NCBI GenBank assembly: GCA_017537965.1
Contig: JAFYJV010000020.1
Location: 1 to 64,000 of the forward strand
From: Bacteroidales bacterium
GTDB lineage: Bacteria > Bacteroidota > Bacteroidia > Bacteroidales > F082
Reading direction: 5' to 3'
Length of the DNA: 64,000 nucleotides
Part shown: positions 45,761 to 59,515 of the stretch, piece by piece
Position numbering within the stretch: the stretch's first letter is position 1
Layout of the letters: every line of letters begins with the position of its first letter
The notes under the pieces: model-generated
Told to the model about the DNA's origin: nothing
Database searches by the model: none
Seen by the model: the letters and a program-made list of their open reading frames with translations, nothing else
Program-made: the position numbers and the translations under genes

Positions 45761-46453
45761 TTATTTATTATCAGGGAGAAGGATTTTTTGCAGTTCTTCG
45801 ACCGAACGAGCGACTGTTAGGCCTTGTATGCCTTCCATATTACGGTAGCCCCAGCCTACGGCGATGCCACGGATGCCACCGTTGGCAGCAGTTTCCATAT
45901 CGGTGTCCGAATCGCCTACTAGAACCTCACCCCCGGCCCCTCTCCCTGGGGAGAGGGGAGCGTTTTCCTTTTGGAGACCCGCTTTGCGAAGCACCTCCTC
46001 TACCACCTCCGGGTCGGGTTTCAGCGGGTATCCAGGGCGGTTGCCCAAGATGGCCACAAAAGGAATGTTGGGGAAGAACTCCTTGATCAGATGTTCTGTG
46101 CCTTCTTGAAACTTATTGGAGGCGACGGCTAGCTTTGTTCCCTTGCGATGGAGTTCGGCTAAAAGCTCCGGAATTCCAGAAAACGGCTTTGTAAACACAT
46201 CGATGTGCGTATTGTAATAAGTGCGAAAATCGGCCAGCACCTCATCAACGAGCTCCTCGTCGTTCCGATGTTCCGCAGGCAAGGCTTTTGTCATGAGGTT
46301 ACGCGCCCCATGGCCGACCATCATCCTATATTCCTCACGCGTATGTTGAGGGAAGCCCTTTTGTTGCATGGCAAAGTTGACCGCCGCACTGAGGTCGTCT
46401 AGCGTATCCAGCAGGGTGCCGTCGAGGTCGAAGATGATTAATTGTGGGTTCAT
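45761..46453 (-). CDS. HAD phosphatase (phosphoglycolate phosphatase-like) with in-frame repeat insertion
   Basis: A 230-residue HAD-superfamily phosphatase. Motif I is DLDGTLLD (Asp9 and Asp11), motif II is AVASNK, the Lys motif lies in YPLKPDPEVV, and motif IV is LVGDSDTDMETA. It resembles Gph-type phosphatases. Between the helix KAGLQKE and motif IV (about residues 164-176) it carries NAPLSPGRGAGGE, which other family members lack here. These residues are encoded by a GC-rich inverted repeat (45937-45958) that looks inserted in frame. All catalytic motifs remain. Its start overlaps the end of vsr by 4 bases. Confidence 0.9.
   Translation of the reverse strand: MNPQLIIFDLDGTLLDTLDDLSAAVNFAMQQKGFPQHTREEYRMMVGHGARNLMTKALPAEHRNDEELVDEVLADFRTYYNTHIDVFTKPFSGIPELLAELHRKGTKLAVASNKFQEGTEHLIKEFFPNIPFVAILGNRPGYPLKPDPEVVEEVLRKAGLQKENAPLSPGRGAGGEVLVGDSDTDMETAANGGIRGIAVGWGYRNMEGIQGLTVARSVEELQKILLPDNK
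45927..45960. repeat. GC-rich inverted repeat inserted in frame in the HAD gene
   Basis: CCCCTCTCCC (45937-45946) and GGGAGAGGGG (45949-45958) are perfect inverted arms with a 2-base spacer, preceded by CTCACCCCCGG. Translated on the minus strand as APLSPGRGAGGE. Confidence 0.85.
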
Positions 46454-47022
46454 TGTTTGGGTTTTGATTCATTGTTATAATCCAAGGCTTCTGCGGCCAT
46501 TGGAAGCGATCCTTCTTCTTCCGTTTGATAATGGAAGGGTACATGATGGCTGTAGAGGGAAAGTAGCTTCTCGTTGAGCAGCAGTTCCACTTGGGTCATG
46601 GTCTGTTCGATGCGTTTCGGCTTGAGTTGGCATTCCCAGATGACGATCACCTGCCAGCCGTTTTCCTGAAGCACCTGGTAGTTTTGTTGGTCCCGTTCCT
46701 GGTTTCTTCGGATCTTGTTCACCCAAAACTGCCGATTCGTTTGCGGTATTTTACAACAACTCGAACCATCACCTCTCACCTCTAAACTCTCACCTCTCAT
46801 CTCCACAAAGTGTCCATGCCAGAAGCACCCGTTGACAAAGATCGCCGTGCGGTACTTCCGCATCACGATATCCGGCTTCCCCGGAACTGACTTCACATTG
46901 AGCCGATAGCGATAGCCATGTGCCCACAGCCATTGTCGCACCTTCAGCTCTGGTTTGGTGTTCCGGCTGCGGATGTGCGACATGCAGCGATGCCTTTGTT
47001 CGGGAGTCATTTTATCAGTCAT
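46450..47022 (-). CDS. vsr: very short patch repair endonuclease with in-frame repeat insertion
   Basis: A 190-residue Vsr DNA mismatch endonuclease, which nicks beside T:G mismatches that arise when 5-methylcytosine deaminates. Landmarks are MTPEQRHRCMSHIRSRNTKPEL, the catalytic Asp51 in PGKPDIV, the zinc/active-site segment VNGCFWHGH (residues 63-71), CCKIPQTN and VIVIWECQLK. Two C5 methyltransferases in the adjacent operon would make such mismatches, so the pairing makes sense. Residues ~74-88 (EMRGESLEVRGDGSS) are an insertion between FWHGH and CCKIP encoded by an AG-rich repeat. The gene starts 147 bases past the nuclease gene, so it may be on its own transcript. Confidence 0.93.
   Translation of the reverse strand: MTDKMTPEQRHRCMSHIRSRNTKPELKVRQWLWAHGYRYRLNVKSVPGKPDIVMRKYRTAIFVNGCFWHGHFVEMRGESLEVRGDGSSCCKIPQTNRQFWVNKIRRNQERDQQNYQVLQENGWQVIVIWECQLKPKRIEQTMTQVELLLNEKLLSLYSHHVPFHYQTEEEGSLPMAAEALDYNNESKPKQ
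46766..46805. repeat. AG-rich direct repeat inserted in frame in vsr
   Basis: On the plus strand CACCTCTCACCTCT, CTCTCACCTCTCAT and similar units repeat over about 40 bases. On the minus strand they read as GAGGTGAGAGG-type units and translate as EMRGESLEVRGDG. Confidence 0.8.
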
Positions 47023-47169: not shown

Positions 47170-49392
47170 TCATTTTTCCGCATGTTCAAATGCAAATGTA
47201 AAACTATCCTGCAAATCAACTCCTTCATCCATTAGTTTCGCAAGTTGCTGAGGTGTGAAAGTTGTTCCAATAGCTGCAAGACGGTCGATGCCATAATTAA
47301 TTGGTTTCTTGAATTTGTGGTAGTTATTGAGCGTGAACAATAAACGCATGGGTTGTTTGGTGTCCTCAATATAGGTGATTCCAATAGAAACAATCTCATA
47401 GGCACCCAAAATCTCGTGATTGAATATCGGAGCAAAGTACTTGATACGTTTAAAGTCAAGCGACTTGTTGGGCTTGCGGCCAGAAATGAATTGGGTTGCC
47501 GTGCCGTTGAGCAAGGAGTTCTTATCATTGATTTTGGCCTCAAAGGTAGAGAGAAGCATTAATTCACCATCGACCTTGGGATTATCCAAACCTTTTGTGT
47601 AGCCCTTGTTCTTCAATAGTTCTGTTGGGTCTTGACCCAAGGTGTATTCACCTGATTTTGTCACAAAAAAATGCTTCTCAAGAGCGGCCAACAAAACTTT
47701 GTTTCCTTCACTTTCTTTTTCGCTGTTCTCCAATGCCAAAACAAACACTTCCTGATTGTCAAACGGGCTAAATACCTTGCCAATAACGCTCTTCAGGTTT
47801 TTGTCCAAATAGTCTTTAGCGCAAGTGGTAGCTTTCGGTGCAAAGGCATAAAAGTGGAATTTGTCAACCAAGACTTCTTGTATCTTCTTTCGGAAAATGT
47901 TTCTCACATGGGTTTTCCAATGGGCTTTTTCCGATGCCTTGTCGCGGGCATACATCCGTACGATGAACAAAAAGTTCACATCATAATACATCAAAAGCAA
48001 GGTGTCGCGGTCAAAGAGTCGATTGTCGAATTGAGTGGAAACAAAGGTTTCCTTGCGGGGCTTGATGTTCAAATCGTTGCCATTATCATCGCTGCCTTGG
48101 TCATATCTCAATGCTTCGTCCACGAATGCCGAAAGGAAGAAGTTGGGTATGATGTCATAGCCTTCGCTGGGTGAGTCAGGGCGCAAACGGACATTACGGA
48201 AATTATCACTGGTTTCACCGCGCAAACGTTTTCCTTCATCATCTTTTTTCCATAGGTTAATGTTCCATTGGATGACATTTCGAGCGTAAGTGTATTGTTT
48301 TGAGACAGACGGCTTGCCCAAACCCGTGGACATCTTATAGTATTTGGAGTCTCCAATGTAATAGACTTCACGATTTTTGGTTGAAGTGAGCGCTAAATCG
48401 GTGTACATGTGGTCCACTTGCTTGCCATCGTCTTGGTCGGCCAATCCAAGAGGTATGTCGTTGTGCGAGGTGCCAACCAATTCATCAATCATCGACTCAA
48501 AAATGATGTTGTACTTCTTGGCAAGTAAGTATTCTTTGTTGTCGGTGTTGGTGGTAAGCAGATAACTACTGTCAAAAAAAGCATAACACAAGTCCCAAAG
48601 CAACACGGCCTTGTCAGAGAAATACTTGTAACGCAGTTCCTTCAACCGTGTTTTTCCATAACCCTTGCGGTAGGTAGCAAACTGTGACTTGGTCAACAGC
48701 TCATACTGCATATTGATAGGCGTCCGAAAACCGTATTCCTCGTTAATAAAGTTAAGGATGGAGAAAAAGATGACGAACAACTCCTCGTCGAAGTTGATCT
48801 GCCTTTTACGGTTGACGGGACTTAAATAAATGGGCGTGCCGTCTTGAAGGAAAGCCTCCGAGTGCGAGATGGTACGGGTCCAGTTGATTTTGTTGTGACC
48901 CGAGTGGATATTCTTAAGTGTGTAGAGATAATAATCTTGGTTTTCTTGATTGAATTGTATAAGCGAGAGGATGATGTCCAAATAAGTGTTGGCCTTATGC
49001 CGCATACCCGAACCTGCGCGGGGCAAACGGCGGTAATAGATGGCCTTTGACTTTGGATTGTGCTGATGGTAAACGGCTATTGTCCGGTATATCCAAGTGG
49101 CAAACTCATACAGGAACTTGCGATATTCAGGGGTAAGGTATTCCTTTTGTCCTTTGGGAGTGATGATTTTTGAGGGATCAATGGTATGATTAGGCCCGAC
49201 TACCAGCTGGTCCTTTTCGTTAAGCAGGACTTTCGGGAGGATGAACACACAATCGGCAATGGCGGGTTCATAGTAGTAACCCACATAGCTCACGCTGACG
49301 TTTTGGTTGACGTCTTGAAGCTCGCTGATGCCATGCAGCACCTGCTTAACCTCCTCGGCAACGTATTGGTGTTCCTCAAAAATGATATACAT
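47170..49392 (-). CDS. LlaJI/McrC-like restriction endonuclease subunit
   Basis: A 740-residue nuclease subunit of a LlaJI-type system, the partner of the McrB-like motor encoded 8 bases upstream. The first ~280 residues resemble the McrC/LlaJI R2 N-terminal part. A PD-(D/E)XK nuclease core is indicated by REVYYIGDSKYYKM (near residue 349), where Asp and Lys are the D-x-K catalytic pair. In LlaJI and McrBC this subunit cuts DNA when driven by the GTP- or ATP-powered motor. The C-terminal ~250 residues continue with helical and strand regions without a motif I recognise. It is the last gene of the operon. Length exceeds McrC (about 350) but suits LlaJI R2-like proteins. Confidence 0.85.
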   Translation of the reverse strand: MYIIFEEHQYVAEEVKQVLHGISELQDVNQNVSVSYVGYYYEPAIADCVFILPKVLLNEKDQLVVGPNHTIDPSKIITPKGQKEYLTPEYRKFLYEFATWIYRTIAVYHQHNPKSKAIYYRRLPRAGSGMRHKANTYLDIILSLIQFNQENQDYYLYTLKNIHSGHNKINWTRTISHSEAFLQDGTPIYLSPVNRKRQINFDEELFVIFFSILNFINEEYGFRTPINMQYELLTKSQFATYRKGYGKTRLKELRYKYFSDKAVLLWDLCYAFFDSSYLLTTNTDNKEYLLAKKYNIIFESMIDELVGTSHNDIPLGLADQDDGKQVDHMYTDLALTSTKNREVYYIGDSKYYKMSTGLGKPSVSKQYTYARNVIQWNINLWKKDDEGKRLRGETSDNFRNVRLRPDSPSEGYDIIPNFFLSAFVDEALRYDQGSDDNGNDLNIKPRKETFVSTQFDNRLFDRDTLLLMYYDVNFLFIVRMYARDKASEKAHWKTHVRNIFRKKIQEVLVDKFHFYAFAPKATTCAKDYLDKNLKSVIGKVFSPFDNQEVFVLALENSEKESEGNKVLLAALEKHFFVTKSGEYTLGQDPTELLKNKGYTKGLDNPKVDGELMLLSTFEAKINDKNSLLNGTATQFISGRKPNKSLDFKRIKYFAPIFNHEILGAYEIVSIGITYIEDTKQPMRLLFTLNNYHKFKKPINYGIDRLAAIGTTFTPQQLAKLMDEGVDLQDSFTFAFEHAEK

Positions 49393-49400
49393 GGGGCAGA

Positions 49401-51116
49401 TTAGGCTTGGTTACCCTTTTCTTTGTTCCAATTCATTACATTGGCGATGAATTGCTTTACCACATCTTCTATGATTTCTCCCTTGTCGTCATAGAATTCG
49501 GGGAATGAGAGGTGACCTGTGGTTTCTTTTTCACTTCCATCTGTGGCTTTCTTTGTAAACTTGAACAAATCGCCTTCCTCGCCATCCATAGCGTAGGTTT
49601 TGAAGATGTCGTTCCAAAGGTAGAAGCACACTTTTGACACAAACTTGTCTAACGAGATGATATTATCATCCTCGGCTCTTACGAAGAAATAACCCAATTG
49701 TTTATCAGCGGAATTGGTCATGTTGCCGATGATGGCATTTATCTGTTGCAGGAATGCCCACCAGTCTGTTCCGTCAGCAATTTGCCAGTCTTTTTCTTTG
49801 GGTTTGGCAATCTTGATATACTTCCACTCCCAACGACGCTTGAAGGCCGAGTCGATGGGAAAGAGCGACTGGTCGGAGGTGTTCATGGTGGCCCAGATGT
49901 AGAGGTTGGCAGGCAGTTTCATGATTTCGCCATTGCGAATATCTTCAGGAACATCATTTTTGCCAGCAAAACAGCCTTTCAAGTAAACTTCCAAGGCATT
50001 ATCAGGTTTGATTTCGTAATCGGAAACGTCGTCATCACCTCTGTCCAAAAGTTGGAAGATGTCGCCGAAGATTTGGGCGCAGTTTCCACGGTTGATTTCC
50101 TCTATGACAAGGATGATGGGCTTGTCAGGGTTGGTCCATGCCTTGGTGTAGGCTTGCACAAAGGCTTGAGGCGTATAGTCGTAAACGATTTCGTCTTTTT
50201 GGGATTGTTGGCTTGTGGCAATATCAATCACGGGCTTTTCTTTTCCTTCCACCACGTAGGTTTGCGGCACCGATTTCATAATGGGTTTGTAGCAGCCCAC
50301 AAAAGTGGAGTAGTCGCTATCGGGATGGAAAGTAGTGCGGATGACCTGTTCCTTCTCGTCAATGCCATGCTCTTGGATGATTTCCTTGATTCTATGGGAT
50401 TTGCCCGTGCCTGGGGCACCGTAAAATATGACTTGGATGGGTAGGTCGCTTTCGAATTCAAATTTCTTTGAAGTCTTATTAGGCGTTCCAGTGATAGTTT
50501 CATCAAATGGGAAAACTCGTAAATCAGTTTTCTCAAAAGAAGACAGTTTATTTTTCTCTCCAATAGAAAGTAGGTATGAACCATTTTGAAGGACATTATT
50601 ACCTAAAGTTACTGAGTAGTAATCCGTCAAGTTAGGTGAGTCATTTCTCTTTGCAAGTGATGCCTTAAATTGTAGATTTAGAATCAGTTCTTGCTCATTC
50701 CATACTATAGGAATTTCATATATGTTCCCCTTTTTATATGGTGCGAGCCTATCAATATTTATTATTTCACCACCATTATGTCCTTGTTTAATTACAACTC
50801 TTTGGTGACGGTCAACATCAATGTAAGTACACTTGTCAACACCCTCCACGTGTGTTATAATTATCTCATCACCCATATGCACGTCGTAATCTCTATAGAA
50901 TTGCCCCATTTGGTTAATCCTAAATTCTCTCCCTTGTGCGGATTTTAGGTAGTATTTCCTATTAGAGGACACATCGGAAACTGCGATTTCTTCTCCCGAA
51001 GGAAATATTTTAGACAAATCGTATGAGTTTGGAATCAGTAAATAACACTCGTGAGTGTTTCCTTTTCCCAGCTCGGTGTTGTTTGGGAAATGAAAGTACT
51101 GCGTGATGGTAATCAT
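49401..51116 (-). CDS. McrB/LlaJI R1-like AAA+ restriction motor with N-terminal DNA-binding domain
   Basis: A 571-residue AAA+ protein of the McrB family. The N-terminal ~200 residues lie where LlaJI R1 proteins carry a B3-like site-recognition domain (FPNNTELGKGNTHECYLL...GDEIIITHV); that fold assignment is inference. Walker A is GAPGTGKS (near residue 235), Walker B is ILVIEEINRGN (near 339), and the McrB-family nucleotide motif appears as MNTSDQS (near 413), followed by the arginine-finger region FKRRWEW. In relatives the motor hydrolyses GTP and translocates DNA toward cleavage by the partner subunit. Its start overlaps the stop of C5 methyltransferase 1 by 4 bases. Confidence 0.92.
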   Translation of the reverse strand: MITITQYFHFPNNTELGKGNTHECYLLIPNSYDLSKIFPSGEEIAVSDVSSNRKYYLKSAQGREFRINQMGQFYRDYDVHMGDEIIITHVEGVDKCTYIDVDRHQRVVIKQGHNGGEIINIDRLAPYKKGNIYEIPIVWNEQELILNLQFKASLAKRNDSPNLTDYYSVTLGNNVLQNGSYLLSIGEKNKLSSFEKTDLRVFPFDETITGTPNKTSKKFEFESDLPIQVIFYGAPGTGKSHRIKEIIQEHGIDEKEQVIRTTFHPDSDYSTFVGCYKPIMKSVPQTYVVEGKEKPVIDIATSQQSQKDEIVYDYTPQAFVQAYTKAWTNPDKPIILVIEEINRGNCAQIFGDIFQLLDRGDDDVSDYEIKPDNALEVYLKGCFAGKNDVPEDIRNGEIMKLPANLYIWATMNTSDQSLFPIDSAFKRRWEWKYIKIAKPKEKDWQIADGTDWWAFLQQINAIIGNMTNSADKQLGYFFVRAEDDNIISLDKFVSKVCFYLWNDIFKTYAMDGEEGDLFKFTKKATDGSEKETTGHLSFPEFYDDKGEIIEDVVKQFIANVMNWNKEKGNQA

Positions 51117-52621
51117 AATATATATTTTTTTATTGTTTCTGCAATTTGTTTGGCCATCAATACTGGCACAGCATTACCTATTTGCATATAGGTTTTCAAG
51201 TATGCACCAAGGAATAGATAGTCGTCAGGAAAGGACTGAACTCTTGCGGCTTCGCGAGGCGTAATACTCCTTGTCTGAAAAGGATGTATGTGAGACAAAC
51301 AATCCATTTTCAAATGTGCGGTTATGGTTCTGCAAGGTCTATCTGCATATAATTTGAAATATTTATCTTTAAAAATGCCATTTCTCCTTGAATATGGCAT
51401 AATGTCCGCAATTTTGGGATTTGTAGCATCTTCACCTTGCCCTAAGCGCTTAAAGATTTCGTAATTGACATCACTACAATATCGTGCTTTATGGTTAAAC
51501 ACATAAGGGATGTTCCTTCCTTGATTAATACTCGATAGATAGGCGTTCCCACAACTGTCATAGGTGTTTAAACCTATCTTCATGCCAGTCTTTTCATCGT
51601 CAATCTCGGTTAAGCCTTTGATTCGAGAAGCGTCCAATGGTTTGATATATTCAAGTGCCGCTCTTAGATTAAATTGCTGGTTCTTTTCACATTCTTTTTC
51701 TATCTCTTGGAAAAGAGCTTCGGGCGTGACATGTTTATCACGGGCAACATCATTGCGGATGGCTATATAAATAAGGCGTTCTCTACTTTGCGCAACTCCG
51801 AAATTCATTGAATTCAGTAAACGATAAGATACATCATAAGTATAAGTTCTACCATCCTTCCTGACCTCAATAGCATTGTAATCTTCAACTACTTGGCTCG
51901 CAACCGAAAGCATGCCACGAACATTCTCCATCACAACAAATTTTGGGCATATCTTTTTAATGGCCTCAATATAGAACTTGTACAATTCATTGCGAGGGTC
52001 ATCAATAATGCGTTGCTGATTTGCGCTGCTGAATCCTTGGCAAGGAGGACCGCCAACTACAATGTCAATATCCTCGTTCACATAATCTTCTATATTGGTG
52101 ACAATCTTTCTTATGTCTTCTTTTAGAACTTTCTGAGCAGGTAGTTCAGGATGATTGTATCGAAAAGTTCTTACACAAACATCTTCAAAGTCGTTGGCAA
52201 AACAAACCTTAAAACCAGCTTGGGTAAAACCACAGCTAAGCCCTCCAGCGCCAGCAAAGAAATCTACTATTTTAGGTTTATCTAGTTTTGCCTCTTTTCC
52301 TTGAAGTTCTTTACGTTTTTTGTTGTTTAACTTATCAAGTTGGTTCCCGTATAATTGCTTGTGCATTAAAAAGAAAGAGAGGGCTGATAAAAACCTATCG
52401 TAATTGTCGCTTACAATCTTTTTGAAAAATTTAATGTCTTCGTCAGAACTAATAATTCCCATCTCTTCCATTTCTACAATCATTTCTATGGAAGGATCAG
52501 AAACTCTAGGAATACTGATATTTTCGCGTTCAGCCAACACTTCAACCAAACGAATATACACCAGAATCTTTTCTATGAATTCTTCCTTACTACTTAACCA
52601 TGTTACGCTTTCAAATATCAT
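51113..52621 (-). CDS. DNA (cytosine-5) methyltransferase 1 with N-terminal extension
   Basis: A 502-residue C5-cytosine methyltransferase that protects host sites from the operon's nuclease. About 115 N-terminal residues of unknown fold precede motif I (DFFAGAGGLSCGF, near 123). Then come motif IV GGPPCQGFS with the catalytic Cys (near 193), motif VI VMENVRG, the target-recognition region, and motif X QIGNAVPVLMA. It overlaps both neighbours by 4 bases. Two C5 enzymes in tandem suggest an asymmetric recognition site, one enzyme per strand, as in LlaJI. Methylated cytosines also explain the nearby vsr. Confidence 0.95.
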   Translation of the reverse strand: MIFESVTWLSSKEEFIEKILVYIRLVEVLAERENISIPRVSDPSIEMIVEMEEMGIISSDEDIKFFKKIVSDNYDRFLSALSFFLMHKQLYGNQLDKLNNKKRKELQGKEAKLDKPKIVDFFAGAGGLSCGFTQAGFKVCFANDFEDVCVRTFRYNHPELPAQKVLKEDIRKIVTNIEDYVNEDIDIVVGGPPCQGFSSANQQRIIDDPRNELYKFYIEAIKKICPKFVVMENVRGMLSVASQVVEDYNAIEVRKDGRTYTYDVSYRLLNSMNFGVAQSRERLIYIAIRNDVARDKHVTPEALFQEIEKECEKNQQFNLRAALEYIKPLDASRIKGLTEIDDEKTGMKIGLNTYDSCGNAYLSSINQGRNIPYVFNHKARYCSDVNYEIFKRLGQGEDATNPKIADIMPYSRRNGIFKDKYFKLYADRPCRTITAHLKMDCLSHIHPFQTRSITPREAARVQSFPDDYLFLGAYLKTYMQIGNAVPVLMAKQIAETIKKYIL

Positions 52622-53832
52622 AGAGCCAAATCGTCTAAATTAGTTTTGATTGATTTTGCTAATGCTTCTGCAAATAAAGGAGGAACTGCGTTGCCAATTT
52701 GTTTATATTTCTCGCCTCTAGAACCTTTAAACTCAAAATCATCAGGGAATGATTGTATTCTTGCCGCCTCACGTACCGTAAACGTTCTTCTCTGTGCTTC
52801 ATCAGGATGGATAAACTGGAAACCATCTTTGTGAATATGTGCCAAAATCGTCTTCGAAGGTAAGTCCCACCATTGAACTACATAGCTATTATCAAAGACA
52901 CGAGCGTGCTCGTGCTCATATTGAGGCATTTCTCTTCTAAGTTGTCCGAACGTCCAATGATTGTGTATCATAACTTGAAAACGTTCTCTGTCCAAATCAT
53001 TGTGACAACGTGCCACATGGTCCATTAGTGGATGGATTCCTTTTTTTCCAATTCGTCTAAGAAATTCATTGTTGCAAGGGTATAAGTATTCTTGCGTTGA
53101 TGCATCACAACCAGGCTCTACTGGAGGCAAATCGCCTATTGCTTTTCTAACATCAACAAAATGTTTCCTCCCCTGCCTTTCGTCAATAGGCGTTTCAGGA
53201 TTCCAATGAGTTTTAACTATATCTTCATAAAGCAATAACGGATCTTTTACAAGATCTTTCCGAACGCCAATAATAATGACACGTTTGCGAATTTGAGGCA
53301 CACCATAATCGGCAGTATTATGAACAAGACTTTCAGGGTTTCCAACCACCTTGTACTTTTTTCCAAGTGCCTTTAATACTTTAGGGAATATTGGCGCATT
53401 ATTTACTTGTGCTGAAAGAAGGCCAGTAACATTTTCAAAAACGAAATATTTTGGATTATAATGCTCCAGTATTTTTACATAACTTTCAAAAAGATAGTTG
53501 CGGGGGTCTGAAGCCATTTTCTTTCCATCTCTAACTCTACCTGCTGTAGAATATGCTTGACACGGAGGACCACCAATTATAATGTCTACGGTTCTACCAT
53601 CTACAGCACTATCAATCCTTTCAAGAATGTCTTTTGAAGTAATGTCGTGCTCAATGACCTCTTTGTCATATTCCTTATACCCATAATACTTCATTCTTGT
53701 TCGAAGAGTCTCGCAACACCAATGGTCAAATTCGACATGGGCAAGTGCCTTAAACCCTTGTCGATAGAACCCTTCAGAGAGTCCACCACACCCTGCGAAC
53801 AAGTCGATGAATGTATATTTTTTCCTGGGCAT
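52618..53832 (-). CDS. DNA (cytosine-5) methyltransferase 2
   Basis: A 404-residue C5-cytosine methyltransferase. Motif I FIDLFAGCGGLSEGF lies at the N-terminus, motif IV GGPPCQAYS near residue 91, motif VI VFENVTG, and motif X KQIGNAVPPLFA at the end. The region between VIII and X is longer than in the shortest family members and should hold target recognition. The ATG at 53832 lies 2 bases past the receiver gene's stop; a TTG at 53838 would give a 4-base overlap. It is not a recent duplicate of methyltransferase 1, since the sequences differ throughout outside the motifs. Confidence 0.95.
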   Translation of the reverse strand: MPRKKYTFIDLFAGCGGLSEGFYRQGFKALAHVEFDHWCCETLRTRMKYYGYKEYDKEVIEHDITSKDILERIDSAVDGRTVDIIIGGPPCQAYSTAGRVRDGKKMASDPRNYLFESYVKILEHYNPKYFVFENVTGLLSAQVNNAPIFPKVLKALGKKYKVVGNPESLVHNTADYGVPQIRKRVIIIGVRKDLVKDPLLLYEDIVKTHWNPETPIDERQGRKHFVDVRKAIGDLPPVEPGCDASTQEYLYPCNNEFLRRIGKKGIHPLMDHVARCHNDLDRERFQVMIHNHWTFGQLRREMPQYEHEHARVFDNSYVVQWWDLPSKTILAHIHKDGFQFIHPDEAQRRTFTVREAARIQSFPDDFEFKGSRGEKYKQIGNAVPPLFAEALAKSIKTNLDDLAL

Positions 53833-53834
53833 AG

Positions 53835-55004
53835 TCAATCGATTTTTGTTGCTTCTTCTGGAATTCTTGGAAGGGCTTGACGCTGCATATACAAAGCATA
53901 TTTTTGCACCAATTTGGTGATAAATGGCGGCAACAACCTGCCGATGCGCAACTCTTTCATTGCTGAAAACTTTTCAATGGAGAACTCGCCCAACTCAAAT
54001 TGTATAGCTTTATGGAAAATTGGGAAAACTGTCACACGAGTTTCTATATCTGCAAAACTACCATCTTTCTTGCTATAATGGCATTTGTCTATTGTTTTTT
54101 CAGATCCTTTTAACAAAAATAATTCCACATTATCAAGCAACATCCCATTTCTTGGAATGCAATCACACTGGGGCCGAACATTGATGTAGTACTCATTTTT
54201 GCCTTCAACATTTTTCAAATAAACATCACCTGTAAAAATCATATTTGGAGATAATCGATTGGCATGGAGGAATCTTTGTCCTTGCATCACATCCCTAATT
54301 TCACTAGCGTTGTAGTTTAGCTCTTCATTATCCGGGATTGGTACATTTGCTAGATCCATCATTGTCATTTGGGAATGAAGATTCTCGAATAACAATTCAT
54401 CTAATTCAAATGCTGTATCAACTCCGTCTTTAGTAGATGTTTTTAAAAAGACTTTAACCCAGTCTGGATTGAGGTTGTACAAGTCCTGAAACAAATTATT
54501 TGATGCCATGCGTTTTTTGCTCTCCCATTCCTTCAGTATATACACTGGCAACGTATTTTTTGTCCATTCTTCTATTGCAGAATAAAGCTTTGGTGAATCA
54601 TCAATCTCTGATTTATGTTTTACAAAAATAAGATTGTTCTTGGTGTCACTATATACACCCCTGTTTTTTAATGAATTGATAATGGCATCTGGGCTTTCAT
54701 TTGTGAATATGAATATCGGCGCAAAACATACATTATGAAATTCTCTAATAAAATCAATGTTATCATTCAGAAGAAACTCATCCGATGCGCCTGTATTCCA
54801 TTTCCAATCAAGTAAAACAAAACTCGCAGAATGAAAACTATGGATTTCCTCGTTTGTCGGCAATACTTCATAGGACAAATAGGGAATGTGTTTCTCTTTG
54901 AAAGATAGTGCTATTTTGCCAATACTACTATTAGCAACATTAATCTCATCGTCTATAATAATACCTATCCCTGAAAACAATTGTACTATATCAGTCATTT
55001 TCAT
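53835..55004 (-). CDS. receiver-domain protein with unknown C-terminal output domain
   Basis: A 389-residue protein. The first ~130 residues have the pattern of a response-regulator receiver: acidic pair Asp18-Asp19 in IIIDDE, phospho-acceptor Asp66 in FVLLDWKW, Thr101 in PIFIFTN and Lys129 in NLIFVKHK. All five key positions are present. The rest is not a known DNA-binding output domain. It contains INVRPQCDCIPR (near residue 270), a Cys-x-Cys element, and ends in a helical region. Its start overlaps the end of the GHKL gene by 14 bases, so it is the natural phosphorylation partner of that protein. The link is inferred from gene order and residues. Start could also be the Met at 54998. Confidence 0.8.
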   Translation of the reverse strand: MKMTDIVQLFSGIGIIIDDEINVANSSIGKIALSFKEKHIPYLSYEVLPTNEEIHSFHSASFVLLDWKWNTGASDEFLLNDNIDFIREFHNVCFAPIFIFTNESPDAIINSLKNRGVYSDTKNNLIFVKHKSEIDDSPKLYSAIEEWTKNTLPVYILKEWESKKRMASNNLFQDLYNLNPDWVKVFLKTSTKDGVDTAFELDELLFENLHSQMTMMDLANVPIPDNEELNYNASEIRDVMQGQRFLHANRLSPNMIFTGDVYLKNVEGKNEYYINVRPQCDCIPRNGMLLDNVELFLLKGSEKTIDKCHYSKKDGSFADIETRVTVFPIFHKAIQFELGEFSIEKFSAMKELRIGRLLPPFITKLVQKYALYMQRQALPRIPEEATKID

Positions 55005-57258
55005 CAGAATTTACAAAGTTAATAACAAAATTAGCCCCAGACAAGATTTGTTCTGAAGGAATCTCGGCCAAAGAAATGGAATACCCCATTCTTTGGAGGA
55101 GTTGTCTTGCAATATACAATCCCAAACCTCGTCCATCTTCTTTTCCCGAATAGAAGGCTTCAAAAATGAAAGGCTTATCGTCTTCACGAATACCTGGGCC
55201 ATTATCTGAGAAGATAACTTGTTGTTTTTCGCCGTCAAGTGTTATGGTGATTTTTTTCTCAACAGTATCAGGGGTGGCTAACCAATATACGGCATTATCA
55301 AAAAGATTGATTAGCAATTGTAGTATGACAGCATCCGTGCATTTTGCGATAATGGGAGACCCGATCTTGTTTACCAAATACTCAATATGCTCTCGGTTTA
55401 AAGTGCGTTTGTAGATTTTTTCCACTTTTTCCAGCAAATCCTCAAAACGAATCGGCCTTCTTCTTTGCTTCGATGATTTGAACATCAATTGAATATCTCT
55501 CATCTGGTCTTTCACAAATGAAAACATACCCCTAATGGAATGAAGTTCGTTTTCAACCTGCTCATCGGTCAACACACCACCATCGATATCTTTTATGAGA
55601 TTATCAATTGCATCAACGCCTTTTGTTAGCATCATTGACATATCGTGTGAGGCGGTTTCCACAGACAAGCCTACGGCTGCCAAATCTTCAGTGTTGTCAA
55701 GTCTGTTTTGGTAAAACTTCTTTTCAATTTGATACGATCTGTATAAATCGTTGTAAACAGCCAAAGCTTTGGTGTTTCCTCCGATACTATCTTTAAGTTG
55801 TGTGAATTGATTATCCACAACTCTCAATTTGTCAATTTGTTGCTCCTTTTGCTGCTTTACCCTTTCCTGATATTGCCTATAGGCATGTTGACGGATGAAC
55901 AATAGAAAAGAGTGTAATAGCACAATGAAATCTCTTGTGGCGTTCCCTTCCTCAATCAATCCCTCGCGGTTTGTTTTGTCTTTCAGTCTCGGATTCCCTT
56001 GTTTGGAAATATCAACAAACCCAACCACTTGGTCATTGCTGAGATAGTCGCCGGCACGTCCAACGCCTCTCTTTTTGTCAATTTCAAGCCAATCGTTGTC
56101 AGGGTCTCCGTATGGTGCAACCCGAATATGGTCTCTATACAAATATATCCTGTGTTCTTTTATTGTTTCTTTGTCTTTTTTATCTAAATAGTATGCGCCG
56201 CTTTCTCTATCAGCCGCAAAATCAAAAACGAAAAAATTAAACTTGAAATCTCCACATGTTGTGCTCCTAATTTCTGTTTCACCAAATAGATTCTTCTCTG
56301 CAAAACGTTCTTTGAAAACGGTTAACCCTGAAATTTGACTGTCTTTAAGCGATAGAGCATAAGGGACGTTGTTTATTTTGTAAGTAAAACGCCCTTCTTT
56401 TTCTGAATATAAGCCATTCGTTATTTTAAGAACCGCAGAATTTTCTAATAAAGATGACAATTCTTTTATGGTCTCATCAGAATACAACAATCTGTTGTCG
56501 TTGCATTCAAAACCAATTTCGAAAAGATCTTCTTTTTTCTTTTCGGAGAATATTTTCTCGAAGATAGATTCAAGCTTTTGAGATTCGGCATTTACTTTTT
56601 TAATCTTGTCAAAAGACCATTCTCCTTTCAGGTTGGAAATCTCAATAATAGTTCCATGATCGTTACCTTGCTCAAACACAGTATTATTGACAACCACTTT
56701 TCTATCTACTAACAGAAACGGTGTTTGCTCTGAAACAGGAATGTTGATATCGTCAATGAACAACTGTTTGTCTTTGCCATCTTCAGTTAGAAAATCATCA
56801 TCATACTGAGACAGTTTATAATCAATGACATATTCAACGTTTTCATCTTCGGGTCTTGTCGTAATCTTTATGTCTCTACCCAATTTAAGAATGGCAAATC
56901 GGCCTATGCCCTTTTCACCCTGAATGATACGGTGCTTCTTTGGAGTAGTCTTTACTTCTTCGTTTTCTCTTGTTTTTTTATTTGGCGTGGCGGGATTCAT
57001 CCAACTATCTTCAATGACTTGCAAAGTCATACCACAGCCATTGTCTTCAACTATAATCTTTGAATCTTTGGTTTTGAGGATTTCTTTTTTCTTCTCGTCA
57101 TAGCCAAAGTTGACAAAATTAACCTTGACCCAATCTGCATCGGCATCGTATGAATTTTTGATAAGTTCTGCCAATGCGATTTGCTCATTTTTTATGAGCT
57201 GTTCTCCAAGCATAGTAAGCAAACGTGCGTATGGCCTTATTTTCAACGTCTTATCCAT
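54991..57258 (-). CDS. dual-GHKL ATPase: MORC/HSP90-like N-terminus and histidine-kinase-like C-terminus
   Basis: A 755-residue soluble protein with two separate GHKL modules. The N-terminal one (about 1-230) has N box ELIKNSYDADAD (Asn35), G1 VEDNGCGM (Asp72) and GEKGIGRFA, as in MORC/HSP90/MutL ATPases. A middle region (about 230-470) and a coiled coil (about 465-530) follow. The C-terminal module has a histidine-kinase H-box-like SHDMSMML (His near 538), N box LLINLFDNAVYWL (near 654), G1 FSDNGPGI (near 684) and GRGLGLYIARQLL (near 711). The next gene encodes a receiver domain, so phosphotransfer is plausible. MORC-like ATPases are known in bacterial restriction operons; the fusion to a kinase core is the unusual part. 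Confidence 0.88.
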   Translation of the reverse strand: MDKTLKIRPYARLLTMLGEQLIKNEQIALAELIKNSYDADADWVKVNFVNFGYDEKKKEILKTKDSKIIVEDNGCGMTLQVIEDSWMNPATPNKKTRENEEVKTTPKKHRIIQGEKGIGRFAILKLGRDIKITTRPEDENVEYVIDYKLSQYDDDFLTEDGKDKQLFIDDINIPVSEQTPFLLVDRKVVVNNTVFEQGNDHGTIIEISNLKGEWSFDKIKKVNAESQKLESIFEKIFSEKKKEDLFEIGFECNDNRLLYSDETIKELSSLLENSAVLKITNGLYSEKEGRFTYKINNVPYALSLKDSQISGLTVFKERFAEKNLFGETEIRSTTCGDFKFNFFVFDFAADRESGAYYLDKKDKETIKEHRIYLYRDHIRVAPYGDPDNDWLEIDKKRGVGRAGDYLSNDQVVGFVDISKQGNPRLKDKTNREGLIEEGNATRDFIVLLHSFLLFIRQHAYRQYQERVKQQKEQQIDKLRVVDNQFTQLKDSIGGNTKALAVYNDLYRSYQIEKKFYQNRLDNTEDLAAVGLSVETASHDMSMMLTKGVDAIDNLIKDIDGGVLTDEQVENELHSIRGMFSFVKDQMRDIQLMFKSSKQRRRPIRFEDLLEKVEKIYKRTLNREHIEYLVNKIGSPIIAKCTDAVILQLLINLFDNAVYWLATPDTVEKKITITLDGEKQQVIFSDNGPGIREDDKPFIFEAFYSGKEDGRGLGLYIARQLLQRMGYSISLAEIPSEQILSGANFVINFVNSDEND

Positions 57259-57264
57259 ATCAAC

Positions 57265-58527
57265 TTACTTTTTCATTATTATCACATACTCATTCGGATA
57301 CACCTTTTTGCAATTCGGATTGTCCTGTTTTGTGAACCTACCTGTATTTTTATCCCTAAGAGTAGGCATTAATTTGTGAGGAATGCTTCGTTTGATTACT
57401 TTTACCTTACACAGTCCCGCATTGCGCAAAAACTCAAAGAAAACCTCAGCAGACTTTATCTGAACGTCTTTTATCTTTGTATTGCCAATCACAATGCAGG
57501 CATAGCCGTTGGGGGCAAGTACTCTTTTCATCTCTTGGGCCACCTTCTGCATGTCATTAAAATATTGGGCAACGTCACGAGCAATATGTTTGCTTTTTCC
57601 CGATAAATCATTGACAATCTTTTGGGCTTGTTTACTATCTGAAACTATTAGTGAATCATTTCCAGAATAGGAAGAACCAATGAACTTCTTGCGAAACTCA
57701 TGAATGTCAGAAATATACTCCATCCAATAGGCTGTTAACTGATGGATGTCAGCATATTCATAAGATGTCACATACGGCGGTGAAGTAATAATTGCATTTA
57801 TGCTTCCCGTCGGGATTGATGTATGGCGAGCATCCTCCAATAGGATTTCACATGTGGTATCCAAGTATCCTTTCTGACACAATTCTTCATAGAACTTTCT
57901 GTTCCATTCCATCATTCTCTTACAATGACGACAGAATTCCTTAAATGGGTCTTCAAGTTTCTTACCCATGTCCCTTTGAGGCTTTGTGCCGGATTGCAAC
58001 CACCATGAACAATTCTTTAAGATATGAGAGATACAAACATAGAAGAAATCCTTTATGTCATCACGAATAACCGAATGGTAAATCTTATCATACAGAAAAG
58101 CAATCTTTGCTTTTTGTGATGGAGTGAACCAATAGTCTATTCTTTCGTGCTTTTTTATATCCGCATAATCGGCTTCATTGTATTCATCAAACAACGCTAC
58201 GAGATTATTGTATGCTGATTGGAGAGCATCAAGCGTCAAAGGTGTCGTCTTTACCTTGGTTATTAGCTGAGCCACAGGATTGATATCCGTCCCAACAGAA
58301 GCAATACCATGAACTTTTGCTTCAACCAAGGTCGTTCCACACCCAGCAAACAAATCTGCTATTCGAATACTATCTTGTGCATAGTCTTCAATAATCTTTC
58401 TGACGACATCAGGAAGAAACTTCGCCGGATAACGATGGTAGCCATGGGTCCATTGTTCCGTAGAACGAACATTTTCAAATGCCCATTCCCGATTTTCTGG
58501 TATGTTGTCAAAACTTATATAGCGCAT
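57265..58527 (-). CDS. amino DNA methyltransferase (TSPPY type, probably N4-cytosine)
   Basis: A 420-residue SAM-dependent DNA methyltransferase. Motif I is ADLFAGCGTTLVEA (near residue 62), and the catalytic motif IV is TSPPY (near 249). TSPPY is most often seen in N4-cytosine enzymes but some N6-adenine enzymes share it. The N-terminal YPAKFLPDVVRKII segment is typical of this subgroup, and the end (RDKNTGRFTKQDNPNC, YVIIMKK) is normal. It is the first gene of the operon, 6 bases before the GHKL gene. Known LlaJI systems have only C5 enzymes, so this is an addition. Whether it protects the same site or marks another is open. Confidence 0.9.
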   Translation of the reverse strand: MRYISFDNIPENREWAFENVRSTEQWTHGYHRYPAKFLPDVVRKIIEDYAQDSIRIADLFAGCGTTLVEAKVHGIASVGTDINPVAQLITKVKTTPLTLDALQSAYNNLVALFDEYNEADYADIKKHERIDYWFTPSQKAKIAFLYDKIYHSVIRDDIKDFFYVCISHILKNCSWWLQSGTKPQRDMGKKLEDPFKEFCRHCKRMMEWNRKFYEELCQKGYLDTTCEILLEDARHTSIPTGSINAIITSPPYVTSYEYADIHQLTAYWMEYISDIHEFRKKFIGSSYSGNDSLIVSDSKQAQKIVNDLSGKSKHIARDVAQYFNDMQKVAQEMKRVLAPNGYACIVIGNTKIKDVQIKSAEVFFEFLRNAGLCKVKVIKRSIPHKLMPTLRDKNTGRFTKQDNPNCKKVYPNEYVIIMKK

Positions 58528-58711: not shown

Positions 58712-59515
58712 CTAACAGCTTACAATTCCATTTAACTGCAAATGCAAAACCGATAAAATCTCACTTAAAATAGAGCTGAGTATATCGTGATTGTCTTGAT
58801 ATTGTCTATCAGACCTATAAACAGTTCCTATCTTTTTTGTCAACGATTCCATCTTCTCGGCAATCTGAATAATGAGCTTGCCCAAATCATCGGCTTCGGC
58901 CATTTCTGAAATCTTGATTTCAACTTTGTCAACAAACGTAGCGGGACGGAGGCTCTTGGATTCGTCTAAGATGTAACTCTCTACTTTCTTACCTGAGGCT
59001 TCTTCCAGAATGTCAATAATAGATATTTGCGAATTGGCCTTGAGTGCGCTGATCAGCGAATATAGATCGGCTGGTTTGGTGTCTTGGACAATATCCACAA
59101 AATCACTGTAGAGGTCGCTGAAAACAGTGTGGTATTTCAGTTGTTCGCGAGTGATGCCATGTGTTTTCACGGTGCCATCAGGATTGTAGTCTTTCTCATC
59201 ATCACTACCGTACTCATTAATATAATCAAGGCGTTTAGAGAGCGCATAATACTCCCAACTACCCGAATACTCATCAAAGTACTCATTGATGATGTTCGCC
59301 CATTCTTCCAATCGTCCAAACACACCATGAAGCCATTTCTCCCAAAGAACGGTCTCATAAAAACTCTGCATCTTGAATACCGCCAACTCGCCTGTCGCAT
59401 CACTGAATGTTCGAGGAATACTCATTGATCGCAAAAGTGAGAGTTTCATGATAATACGATTGAATACTTTCGCAAGGGGCAAATCGCTCTCTATGGGTTT
59501 CAGATAATCTTTCAT
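58712..59515 (-). CDS. uncharacterised protein upstream of the restriction operon
   Basis: A 267-residue acidic, mostly helical protein I do not recognise. It has no signal peptide and no membrane segment. Patterns include a Trp/Tyr-rich middle (YETVLWEKWLHGVFGRLEEWA, SWEYYALSKRLDYI) and a helical C-terminus (ELGKLII-like segment DDLGKLIIQIAEKMESLTKK). The gene shares strand and AT-rich composition with the restriction operon but is separated from it by 184 bases. It could be a further member of the defence island or an independent cargo gene. Function unknown. Confidence 0.75.
   Translation of the reverse strand: MKDYLKPIESDLPLAKVFNRIIMKLSLLRSMSIPRTFSDATGELAVFKMQSFYETVLWEKWLHGVFGRLEEWANIINEYFDEYSGSWEYYALSKRLDYINEYGSDDEKDYNPDGTVKTHGITREQLKYHTVFSDLYSDFVDIVQDTKPADLYSLISALKANSQISIIDILEEASGKKVESYILDESKSLRPATFVDKVEIKISEMAEADDLGKLIIQIAEKMESLTKKIGTVYRSDRQYQDNHDILSSILSEILSVLHLQLNGIVSC

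What the first reader, a model, noticed from the sequence alone, without database searches (positions are those of the whole stretch)
47170..58527. LlaJI-type restriction operon carrying a GHKL/receiver pair and an extra amino methyltransferase
Seen: seven same-strand genes with 2-8 base gaps or 4-14 base overlaps. Known: LlaJI systems comprise two C5 methyltransferases, a McrB-like motor and a second restriction subunit, matching the last four genes. Inference: the first three (TSPPY methyltransferase, dual GHKL ATPase, receiver protein) form a sensing or control module that could gate cleavage, for example by phosphotransfer when foreign DNA or DNA damage is sensed. A restriction system controlled by its own two-component-like relay would be new to me.
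Basis: partly seen in the sequence, partly recalled or inferred. Interest (0 to 1): 0.85.

Follow-up and report, generated by a model that had tools for sequence, protein, structure and literature searches.

The report
Methyltransferase–kinase–receiver module beside restriction genes
A Bacteroidales bacterium carries a mobile three-gene signalling unit (a DNA-marking enzyme, a kinase that resembles DNA-clamp proteins, and its receiver) joined in one operon to DNA-cutting genes; elsewhere each half also occurs without the other, which hints that bacteria may read DNA marks through a phosphate relay.

Summary
The seven tightly packed genes are there, but they are two joined units. (1) A triad: TSPPY DNA methyltransferase (MT), MORC-like dual-ATPase histidine kinase (HK), receiver protein (RR). 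Among 80 kinase relatives, MT–HK–RR is adjacent in 60 of 64 loci visible on both sides; no other family recurs in more than 6 of 88 loci. Relay and ATPase residues are essentially invariant. HK and RR identities co-vary (rho 0.91); MTs were exchanged between HK–RR lineages (rho 0.29). (2) A LlaJI-like cassette, found in 3 of the 80, and on a Pedobacter plasmid complete without the triad. Other loci hold different restriction genes after RR, or the triad between type III mod and res; for most none was recognised. The pair is a distant branch of HEF_HK/Response_reg_2, published in 2021 as linked to R-M: a new variant of a known kind. Gating of cleavage is plausible, untested. Bolder, not excluded: the triad alone is a restriction-like system with phosphorelay output.

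The parts
57265..58527 (-). Amino-methyltransferase (MT), TSPPY catalytic motif; N4-cytosine type suggested by the motif (recalled); first gene of the triad
   Evidence: PF01555 E 1e-18; TSPPY invariant in 36 of 36 aligned members; adjacent upstream of HK in 66 of 73 loci with at least 1.3 kb visible
54991..57258 (-). Dual-ATPase histidine kinase (HK): N-terminal HATPase_c_3 (MutL/MORC-like), H-box His538, C-terminal HATPase_c
   Evidence: both ATPase domains in 37 of 37 members scanned; His538 in 81 of 82 rows (one gap), N-terminal E31, N35, D72, G74, G76 in 82 of 82
53835..55004 (-). Receiver protein (RR): receiver domain with Asp66, plus a C-terminal domain with a 'GD...P-x-CD' motif
   Evidence: D18, D66, W67, K131, G259, C280 invariant in 66; profile match to Response_reg_2 proteins over the receiver, probability 97.7%, E 2e-12, and separately over the C-terminal domain, 95.7%, E 9e-9
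52618..53838 (-). C5-cytosine methyltransferase 1
   Evidence: PF00145 E 7e-66
51113..52621 (-). C5-cytosine methyltransferase 2
   Evidence: PF00145 E 5e-66
49401..51116 (-). R1, McrB-like AAA+ restriction subunit
   Evidence: AAA_5 above its cut-off; PADLOC REase_II E 1.5e-44; 33% identity over 319 aligned positions to the AAA protein of the LlaJI cluster on pNP40
47170..49392 (-). R2, predicted PD-(D/E)xK-type nuclease subunit (D348-S-K350 with D327/D332 upstream)
   Evidence: No significant family hit; those residues invariant in the 4 aligned sequences; weak, non-significant profile match to LlaJI R2 with the DxK and KQxTY stretches in register
46450..47022 (-). Vsr mismatch endonuclease, 147 bases downstream; expected companion of C5 methylation
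   Evidence: PF03852 E 4e-33, TIGR00632 above cut-off

Best explanation
The run is a composite. Its first three genes are a self-contained, horizontally moving module: a DNA amino-methyltransferase, a MORC-like histidine kinase, and its cognate receiver protein. This is a diverged branch of the published HEF_HK/Response_reg_2 pair. Its last four genes are a McrBC/LlaJI-like restriction cassette with its own C5 methyltransferases. Proposed working: the methyltransferase marks self DNA; the kinase's N-terminal clamp-type ATPase senses unmodified or damaged DNA; its second ATPase phosphorylates His538; the phosphate passes to Asp66 of the receiver; the receiver's C-terminal domain delivers the output. 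In this operon the output licenses or represses the McrB-like motor nuclease made from the same gene run. Shown: module, conservation, co-variation and exchange. Inferred: the signal, the phosphotransfer, the output, and that restriction is its target.
For: Triad adjacent in 60 of 64 loci visible on both sides, mostly with short overlaps or gaps. His538, Asp66 and both ATP sites essentially invariant. HK and RR identities correlate at rho 0.91 over 64 loci, MT with HK only 0.29. A second HK clade (11 of 28 tree rows) is one fully supported clade in both HK and RR trees, and is rejected as a clade in the MT tree (AU p 1.9e-62). McrBC-type loci have MTs 70-97% identical to each other across both HK clades, and three of four type III loci have MTs 70-81% identical across both, as if MT travels with the restriction type. 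In L026, L082 and L089 the triad lies between mod and res of a type III system. In the window the RR and first C5 MTase genes overlap by 4 bases or lie 2 bases apart.
Against: After RR no restriction gene was recognised in 18 of 28 Bacteroidota loci (17 if a res relic in L025 is counted) and 32 of 33 others, so restriction is not the module's obligatory target. The whole four-gene cassette occurs without the triad on a Pedobacter plasmid, so it does not need the relay. In L016, MT (91%) and HK (96%) match the window but RR is about 40% identical and the restriction genes differ: RR may adapt to the cassette, or neighbours may simply be replaced. L019 and L020 share RR (99%) but differ downstream, against a strict RR-cassette match. 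The type III locus L089 has an MT 56-59% identical to the other type III MTs and 61-62% to the McrBC-type ones, and groups nearer the latter; L020 and L021 also fall in or beside the McrBC-type MT group without such a cassette. No biochemical data; the structure prediction of RR never returned.
Confidence: 0.47

Rival explanations
1. Neighbours, not partners: the triad is a complete system of its own (defence or epigenetic control), and the LlaJI-like cassette is independent cargo at a defence hotspot that happens to lie in the same gene run.
For: Only MT, HK and RR recur; the next family is in 6 of 88 loci. 28 of 54 loci with RR and at least 1.5 kb beyond it have no same-strand gene within 250 bases (this includes L085, whose cassette starts about 370 bases on). 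The complete cassette stands without the triad on a Pedobacter plasmid. Window, L016 and L029 share flanking DNA but differ in cassette. L016 keeps a short stretch like a C5 MTase start, and L025 one like a type III res start, just after RR (by eye): cassettes come and go.
Against: Restriction genes of unrelated types sit directly after RR in 10 of 28 Bacteroidota loci, and in three loci the triad sits inside a type III operon. MT type tends to follow restriction type across HK clades, with exceptions.
Confidence: 0.36
2. Transcriptional control: phosphorylated RR sets expression of MT and restriction genes (establishment control, like C proteins), without touching the nuclease.
For: Three phased repeats TTAGTGGGTAAST, 21-22 bp apart, lie just after the RR stop and before the next genes in L018, L019, L020 and, degenerate, L080.
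Against: The window has no such repeats within 2 mismatches and no space for a promoter between RR and the first C5 MTase. No known DNA-binding domain in RR. A further exact copy of the repeats lies beside another gene on a viral contig.
Confidence: 0.1
3. MORC-motor reading: HK is chiefly a DNA-looping ATPase that works as a subunit of the restriction machine, as Iyer et al. 2008 proposed for paraMORCs; the kinase half is secondary.
For: N-terminal HATPase_c_3 with intact boxes in 82 of 82 rows; 37 of 37 scanned members keep it.
Against: The C-terminal kinase ATPase, His538 and the receiver's Asp66 are just as invariant.
Confidence: 0.07

Closest known systems
HEF_HK / Response_reg_2 pair (Bellieny-Rabelo et al. 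2021, PMC8011034; Pfam PF19191, PF19192)
   Same: HATPase_c_3 + H-box + HATPase_c kinase next to a receiver protein; linked in that paper to C5 MTases, Vsr and R-M genes; receiver and C-terminal domains of RR both homologous by profile. The five PF19192 loci that I opened (of seven found in 295 genomes) all show C5 MTase-HK-RR.
   Different: Window proteins miss both Pfam models; kinase about 750 against 970-1010 aa, receiver about 390-480 against 540-550 aa; the fixed MTase is of the TSPPY amino type, not C5.
LlaJI restriction-modification system of pNP40 (PMC1459862; L111)
   Same: Gene order C5, C5, AAA subunit, nuclease subunit; AAA domain 33% identical.
   Different: R2 is 740 against 414 aa, without a significant sequence match; a triad precedes it here.
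Cassette on Pedobacter sp. plasmid pA27BH1 (L113)
   Same: C5, C5, AAA (43% over 282 aa) and R2-like (31% over 501 aa) in the same order.
   Different: No triad in the 19.5 kb fetched.
MORC / paraMORC GHKL ATPases in R-M operons (Iyer et al. 2008, PMC2292703)
   Same: N-terminal GHKL ATPase beside methylases, Vsr and restriction genes.
   Different: A histidine-kinase half and a receiver partner; no SF2 helicase hit among the window's operon genes.
McrBC-type cassettes with DUF2357/PDDEXK_7 (L016, L018, L019)
   Same: McrB-like AAA protein plus PD-(D/E)xK protein downstream of RR.
   Different: Nuclease subunit of another family: A5 against A6 shows no convincing homology.

Membership tests
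HEF_HK / Response_reg_2 two-component-like pair | Window proteins match PF19191 / PF19192 | tested here: not met
   No hit at E <= 1 for the window proteins; the PF19192 search finds none in the window's genome. Relatives: 6 of 66 RRs (best E 1.6e-5) and 3 of 37 HKs (best E 0.0033) match at E <= 0.1
HEF_HK / Response_reg_2 two-component-like pair | Homology of receiver and C-terminal domains to Response_reg_2 proteins | tested here: met
   hhalign 97.7%, E 2e-12 over the receiver; 95.7%, E 9e-9 over the C-terminal domain
HEF_HK / Response_reg_2 two-component-like pair | HATPase_c_3 + H-box His + HATPase_c kinase, adjacent receiver gene, R-M or C5 MTase neighbour | tested here: met
Two-component system | Conserved His, Asp, acidic residue and Lys; kinase ATP site | tested here: met
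Two-component system | Phosphotransfer from HK to RR | not testable with these tools
   Needs purified proteins
LlaJI-type R-M system | Two C5 MTases followed by a McrB-like R1 and a nuclease R2 | tested here: met
   R2's nuclease nature rests on motif only
LlaJI-type R-M system | R1 homologous to R1.LlaJI | tested here: met
   33% identity over the AAA half; no real alignment of the N-terminal half, which PMC1459862 reports as usual for R1 homologues
LlaJI-type R-M system | R2 homologous to R2.LlaJI | tested here: inconclusive
   tblastn of R2 finds only the Pedobacter plasmid, not pNP40; hhalign probability 0.9%, E 0.064, motifs in register
LlaJI-type R-M system | C5 MTases homologous to M1/M2.LlaJI | not tested
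   Both are C5 MTases; not compared one to one
MORC / paraMORC | N-terminal GHKL ATPase with intact motifs | tested here: met
MORC / paraMORC | S5 domain after the GHKL domain and family-specific motif | not tested
   No structure obtained; the motif was not aligned

The most novel reading that the evidence does not exclude
The stand-alone triad is itself a restriction-like immunity system with no nuclease gene. MTases (two in a recurrent proteobacterial form) mark self, a MORC-like kinase reads unmarked DNA, and the receiver's C-terminal 'GD...CD' domain is the effector. Conventional nucleases (McrBC/LlaJI-like, type III) have been plugged in behind it, or around it, repeatedly in Bacteroidota. 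That would make a phosphorelay the restriction arm of an R-M system.
Probability: 0.22. Interest if true: 0.87.

Novelty: new variant of a known kind. Interest (0 to 1): 0.62.

Why it matters
The 2021 paper left open what a kinase/receiver pair does beside R-M genes. The triad defined here, often without any recognised restriction gene and in some lineages with two methyltransferases, makes that question testable in a small construct: does deleting the methyltransferase become harmful only while kinase and receiver are intact? If so, DNA modification is read by a phosphate relay, a mechanism not known to me in R-M. If not, the module is a methylation or expression control unit that nucleases have repeatedly joined.

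Tried and rejected
Rejected: (a) 'one LlaJI operon with accessory genes', by the 80-locus survey and the Pedobacter cassette. (b) A strict pairing of RR class with cassette: suggested by window/L016 and L018/L019, contradicted by L019/L020. (c) RR with a known DNA-binding output domain: no family hit, no PDB relative by sequence. (d) A recurrent overlooked companion nuclease within the loci: no further family recurs beyond 6 loci. (e) Phage-borne origin: a viral-contig scan with the window kinase alone found none; with the four-kinase alignment it found 6 contigs, one of them the contig of L055; not pursued. (f) Promoter and terminator scan: uninformative. (g) Paper searches for a kinase/receiver/methyltransferase defence or R-M system. 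Nothing closer than PMC8011034 and PMC2292703 in the lists shown (and others listed only the top of longer lists); passages of PMC12839542 (BREX) were off the point; a figure legend in PMC13092281 (DefensePredictor, 2026; passages) names HATPase and REC domains among predicted, unvalidated systems. The library lacks most subscription papers.

Limits: the 80 loci are the best of 254 found with an alignment of four kinases, all from triad loci, so the sample leans towards kin; two of those four lie on contigs that are also in the 80 (L013 = L060, L014 = L083), so the 88 loci and the rows hold two duplicates. Many loci are metagenome bins whose taxon may be wrong; phylum labels were assigned by me from record titles. 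Restriction genes after RR were recognised with seeds taken from Bacteroidota loci, L051 and L106, so unrelated ones elsewhere could be missed; the next genes of 11 further loci that I read by eye did not look like restriction genes to me, apart from a truncated Dam-like gene in L020. One search counts a Schlafen-type helicase (L021) as a hit. The 'McrBC' group was named after seeing the identity table and includes L017 (contig ends after RR) and L020 (Dam-like neighbour, by eye). MT and HK trees were 'quick' trees with long branches flagged. Spearman values use non-independent pairs.
Full report
WHAT IS THERE. Seven minus-strand genes run from 58527 to 47170 with gaps of 6 and 8 bases and overlaps of 14 and 4 bases. 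In order: amino-methyltransferase (MT), dual-GHKL kinase (HK), receiver protein (RR), two C5 methyltransferases, a McrB-like AAA protein (R1), and a 740-aa protein (R2) without significant family hits. A vsr gene follows.

THE FIRST THREE GENES ARE A UNIT OF THEIR OWN. Close relatives are rare: in the window's order 2 of 295 genomes have an RR match, the window's own included; in the phylum 3 of 395, own included; in the family 4 of 173 have an HK match at E <= 1e-30, own included. Among these, where at least 1.3 kb is visible, MT is adjacent upstream in 66 of 73, RR adjacent downstream in 69 of 70, and both in 60 of 64. The loci that miss MT are L076 (broken frames), L079, L088 and L092 (an 819/821-aa gene between MT and HK), L093, L094 (its MT overlaps an over-long HK ORF) and L095; the one that misses RR is L076. 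Record titles include Bacteroidota, Alphaproteobacteria, Burkholderia, Bacilli, Clostridia, Planctomycetota, Verrucomicrobia, Nitrospirales and several candidate phyla. Clustering 1225 ORFs of 88 loci (two of them duplicates) leaves HK (88 loci), MT (81) and RR (79); the next family reaches 6.

THE RELAY LOOKS WORKING. His538 is present in 81 of 82 kinase rows (one gap), the N-terminal GHKL residues E31, N35, D72, G74 and G76 in 82 of 82, and the C-terminal N-box and G-box residues N651, D654, N655, G687, G711, G713 in all rows without a gap there. In 66 receivers D18, D66, W67 and K131 are invariant. MT keeps TSPPY in 36 of 36; that this motif points to N4-cytosine methylation is recalled knowledge. 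HK and RR identities correlate at rho 0.91 over 64 loci; MT-HK 0.29 and MT-RR 0.31.

MODULES ARE EXCHANGED. A second HK clade (11 of the 28 rows in the trees; about 32% identical to the window's HK) is one fully supported clade in the HK and RR trees, but in the MT tree its members scatter, and holding them together is rejected (AU p 1.9e-62). Example: window and L080 share MT at 85% but HK at 32% and RR at 19%. Conversely L016 shares MT (91%) and HK (96%) with the window but RR only at about 40%; DNA similarity stops 56 bases inside the window's RR gene. L018 and L019 (HK 99%) break at the same distance into RR. Window, L016 and L029 share flanking DNA, so this is probably one site with changing contents. 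L016 still has about 40 bases resembling a C5 MTase start after RR, and L025 the start of a type III res gene (read by eye).

WHAT FOLLOWS THE TRIAD. A restriction or defence gene was recognised directly after RR in 10 of 28 Bacteroidota loci and 1 of 33 others with at least 1 kb visible. Seen in these loci: McrB-like AAA plus LlaJI-like R2 (L029, L080, L085; 3 of 80, and the window), McrB-like AAA plus DUF2357/PDDEXK_7 (L016, L018, L019), type III res (L026, L082, L089), HNH (L019), a Schlafen-type helicase (L021), mod (L051). In L026, L082 and L089 the order is mod-MT-HK-RR-res. MT sequence tends to follow restriction type across the two HK clades: McrBC-type loci 70-97%; type III loci L025 (relic), L026 and L082 70-81%. 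L089 is an exception: 56-59% to the other type III MTs, 61-62% to the McrBC-type ones, and nearer the latter in the tree. In seven proteobacterial loci of the 80, and on the Allorhizobium plasmid, a second TSPPY MTase (53-77% identical among themselves) lies next to the triad, while no nuclease family recurs; two other proteobacterial loci with that side visible, L058 and L059, show none. Two MTases beside a kinase/receiver pair, with nothing else recurring, is what prompts the novel reading.

THE CASSETTE ALSO STANDS ALONE. Pedobacter sp. plasmid pA27BH1 has C5, C5, AAA (43% over 282 aa of R1) and an R2-like gene (31% over 501 aa) in the window's order, and profiles of MT, HK and RR find nothing in the 19.5 kb around it.

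RELATION TO WHAT IS KNOWN. Bellieny-Rabelo et al. 2021 (PMC8011034; abstract, introduction, results and discussion read) described HEF_HK kinases and Response_reg_2 receivers, 91.6% linked in 644 regions, enriched beside R-M genes, C5 MTases and Vsr, and speculated on control of R-M. The window proteins miss both Pfam models, but the RR profile matches theirs over the receiver (97.7%, E 2e-12) and over the C-terminal domain (95.7%, E 9e-9). The five such loci that I opened, of seven found, have C5 MTase-HK-RR. So the window's triad is a sister form with an amino-MTase in that place. Iyer et al. 2008 (PMC2292703; abstract and two of three parts of its main section read) placed MORC-like ATPases in R-M operons. 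LlaJI (PMC1459862; first of six parts read) has the same four-gene order; its R1 matches in the motor domain (33%), its R2 does not significantly.

JUDGEMENT. Established here: a conserved methyltransferase-kinase-receiver triad, a co-varying HK-RR pair, exchange of MT and of cassettes, and an adjacent LlaJI-like cassette that also occurs alone. Likely: a working phosphorelay. Open: what it senses and what it drives. Gating of the adjacent nuclease is reasonable in this operon but is unlikely to be the module's general job, since no such gene was recognised beside most copies.

Noticed in passing
L018:13429-13484, L019:6115-6170, L020:6703-6758, L080:13433-13487: Three phased repeats TTAGTGGGTAAST (21-22 bp apart; degenerate in L080) right after the RR stop codon. 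Exact pairs: 0 of 247 genomes of the order and one viral contig, L112, just after a gene end that looks helix-turn-helix-like, with integrase-like ORFs upstream (by eye). Operator or recombination site unknown.
   Followed up: partly
L026, L082, L089: The triad sits between mod and res of a type III R-M operon.
   Followed up: partly
L045, L052, L055, L056, L061, L067, L087, L012: A second TSPPY methyltransferase (about 390 aa in most, 'HPFPARMAP' near the start) next to the triad, divergent in seven of the eight (same strand in L052).
   Followed up: partly
L088:7480-9939, L092:7470-9935: In two Flavobacterium genomes an 819/821-aa protein, perhaps Hsp90/GHKL-like (a guess from its start), lies between MT and HK.
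   Followed up: no
L013:131-4052 and L013:9475-15080: One contig carries both forms: the amino-MTase triad (MT cut by the contig end) and a C5 MTase - 994-aa kinase - 525-aa receiver triad.
   Followed up: partly
window 58712-59515 (-): 267-aa protein upstream of the operon with no convincing family hit and no phmmer relative in 84 loci.
   Followed up: no
A3 members (RR): 21 of 66 receiver proteins match OKR_DC_1_N (a receiver-like fold, recalled) weakly, more than match Response_reg_2 (6 of 66).
   Followed up: no
plasmid collection: Of 96 plasmid records with a match to the HK's first 556 residues, 41 are Campylobacter; their neighbourhoods were not opened.
   Followed up: no
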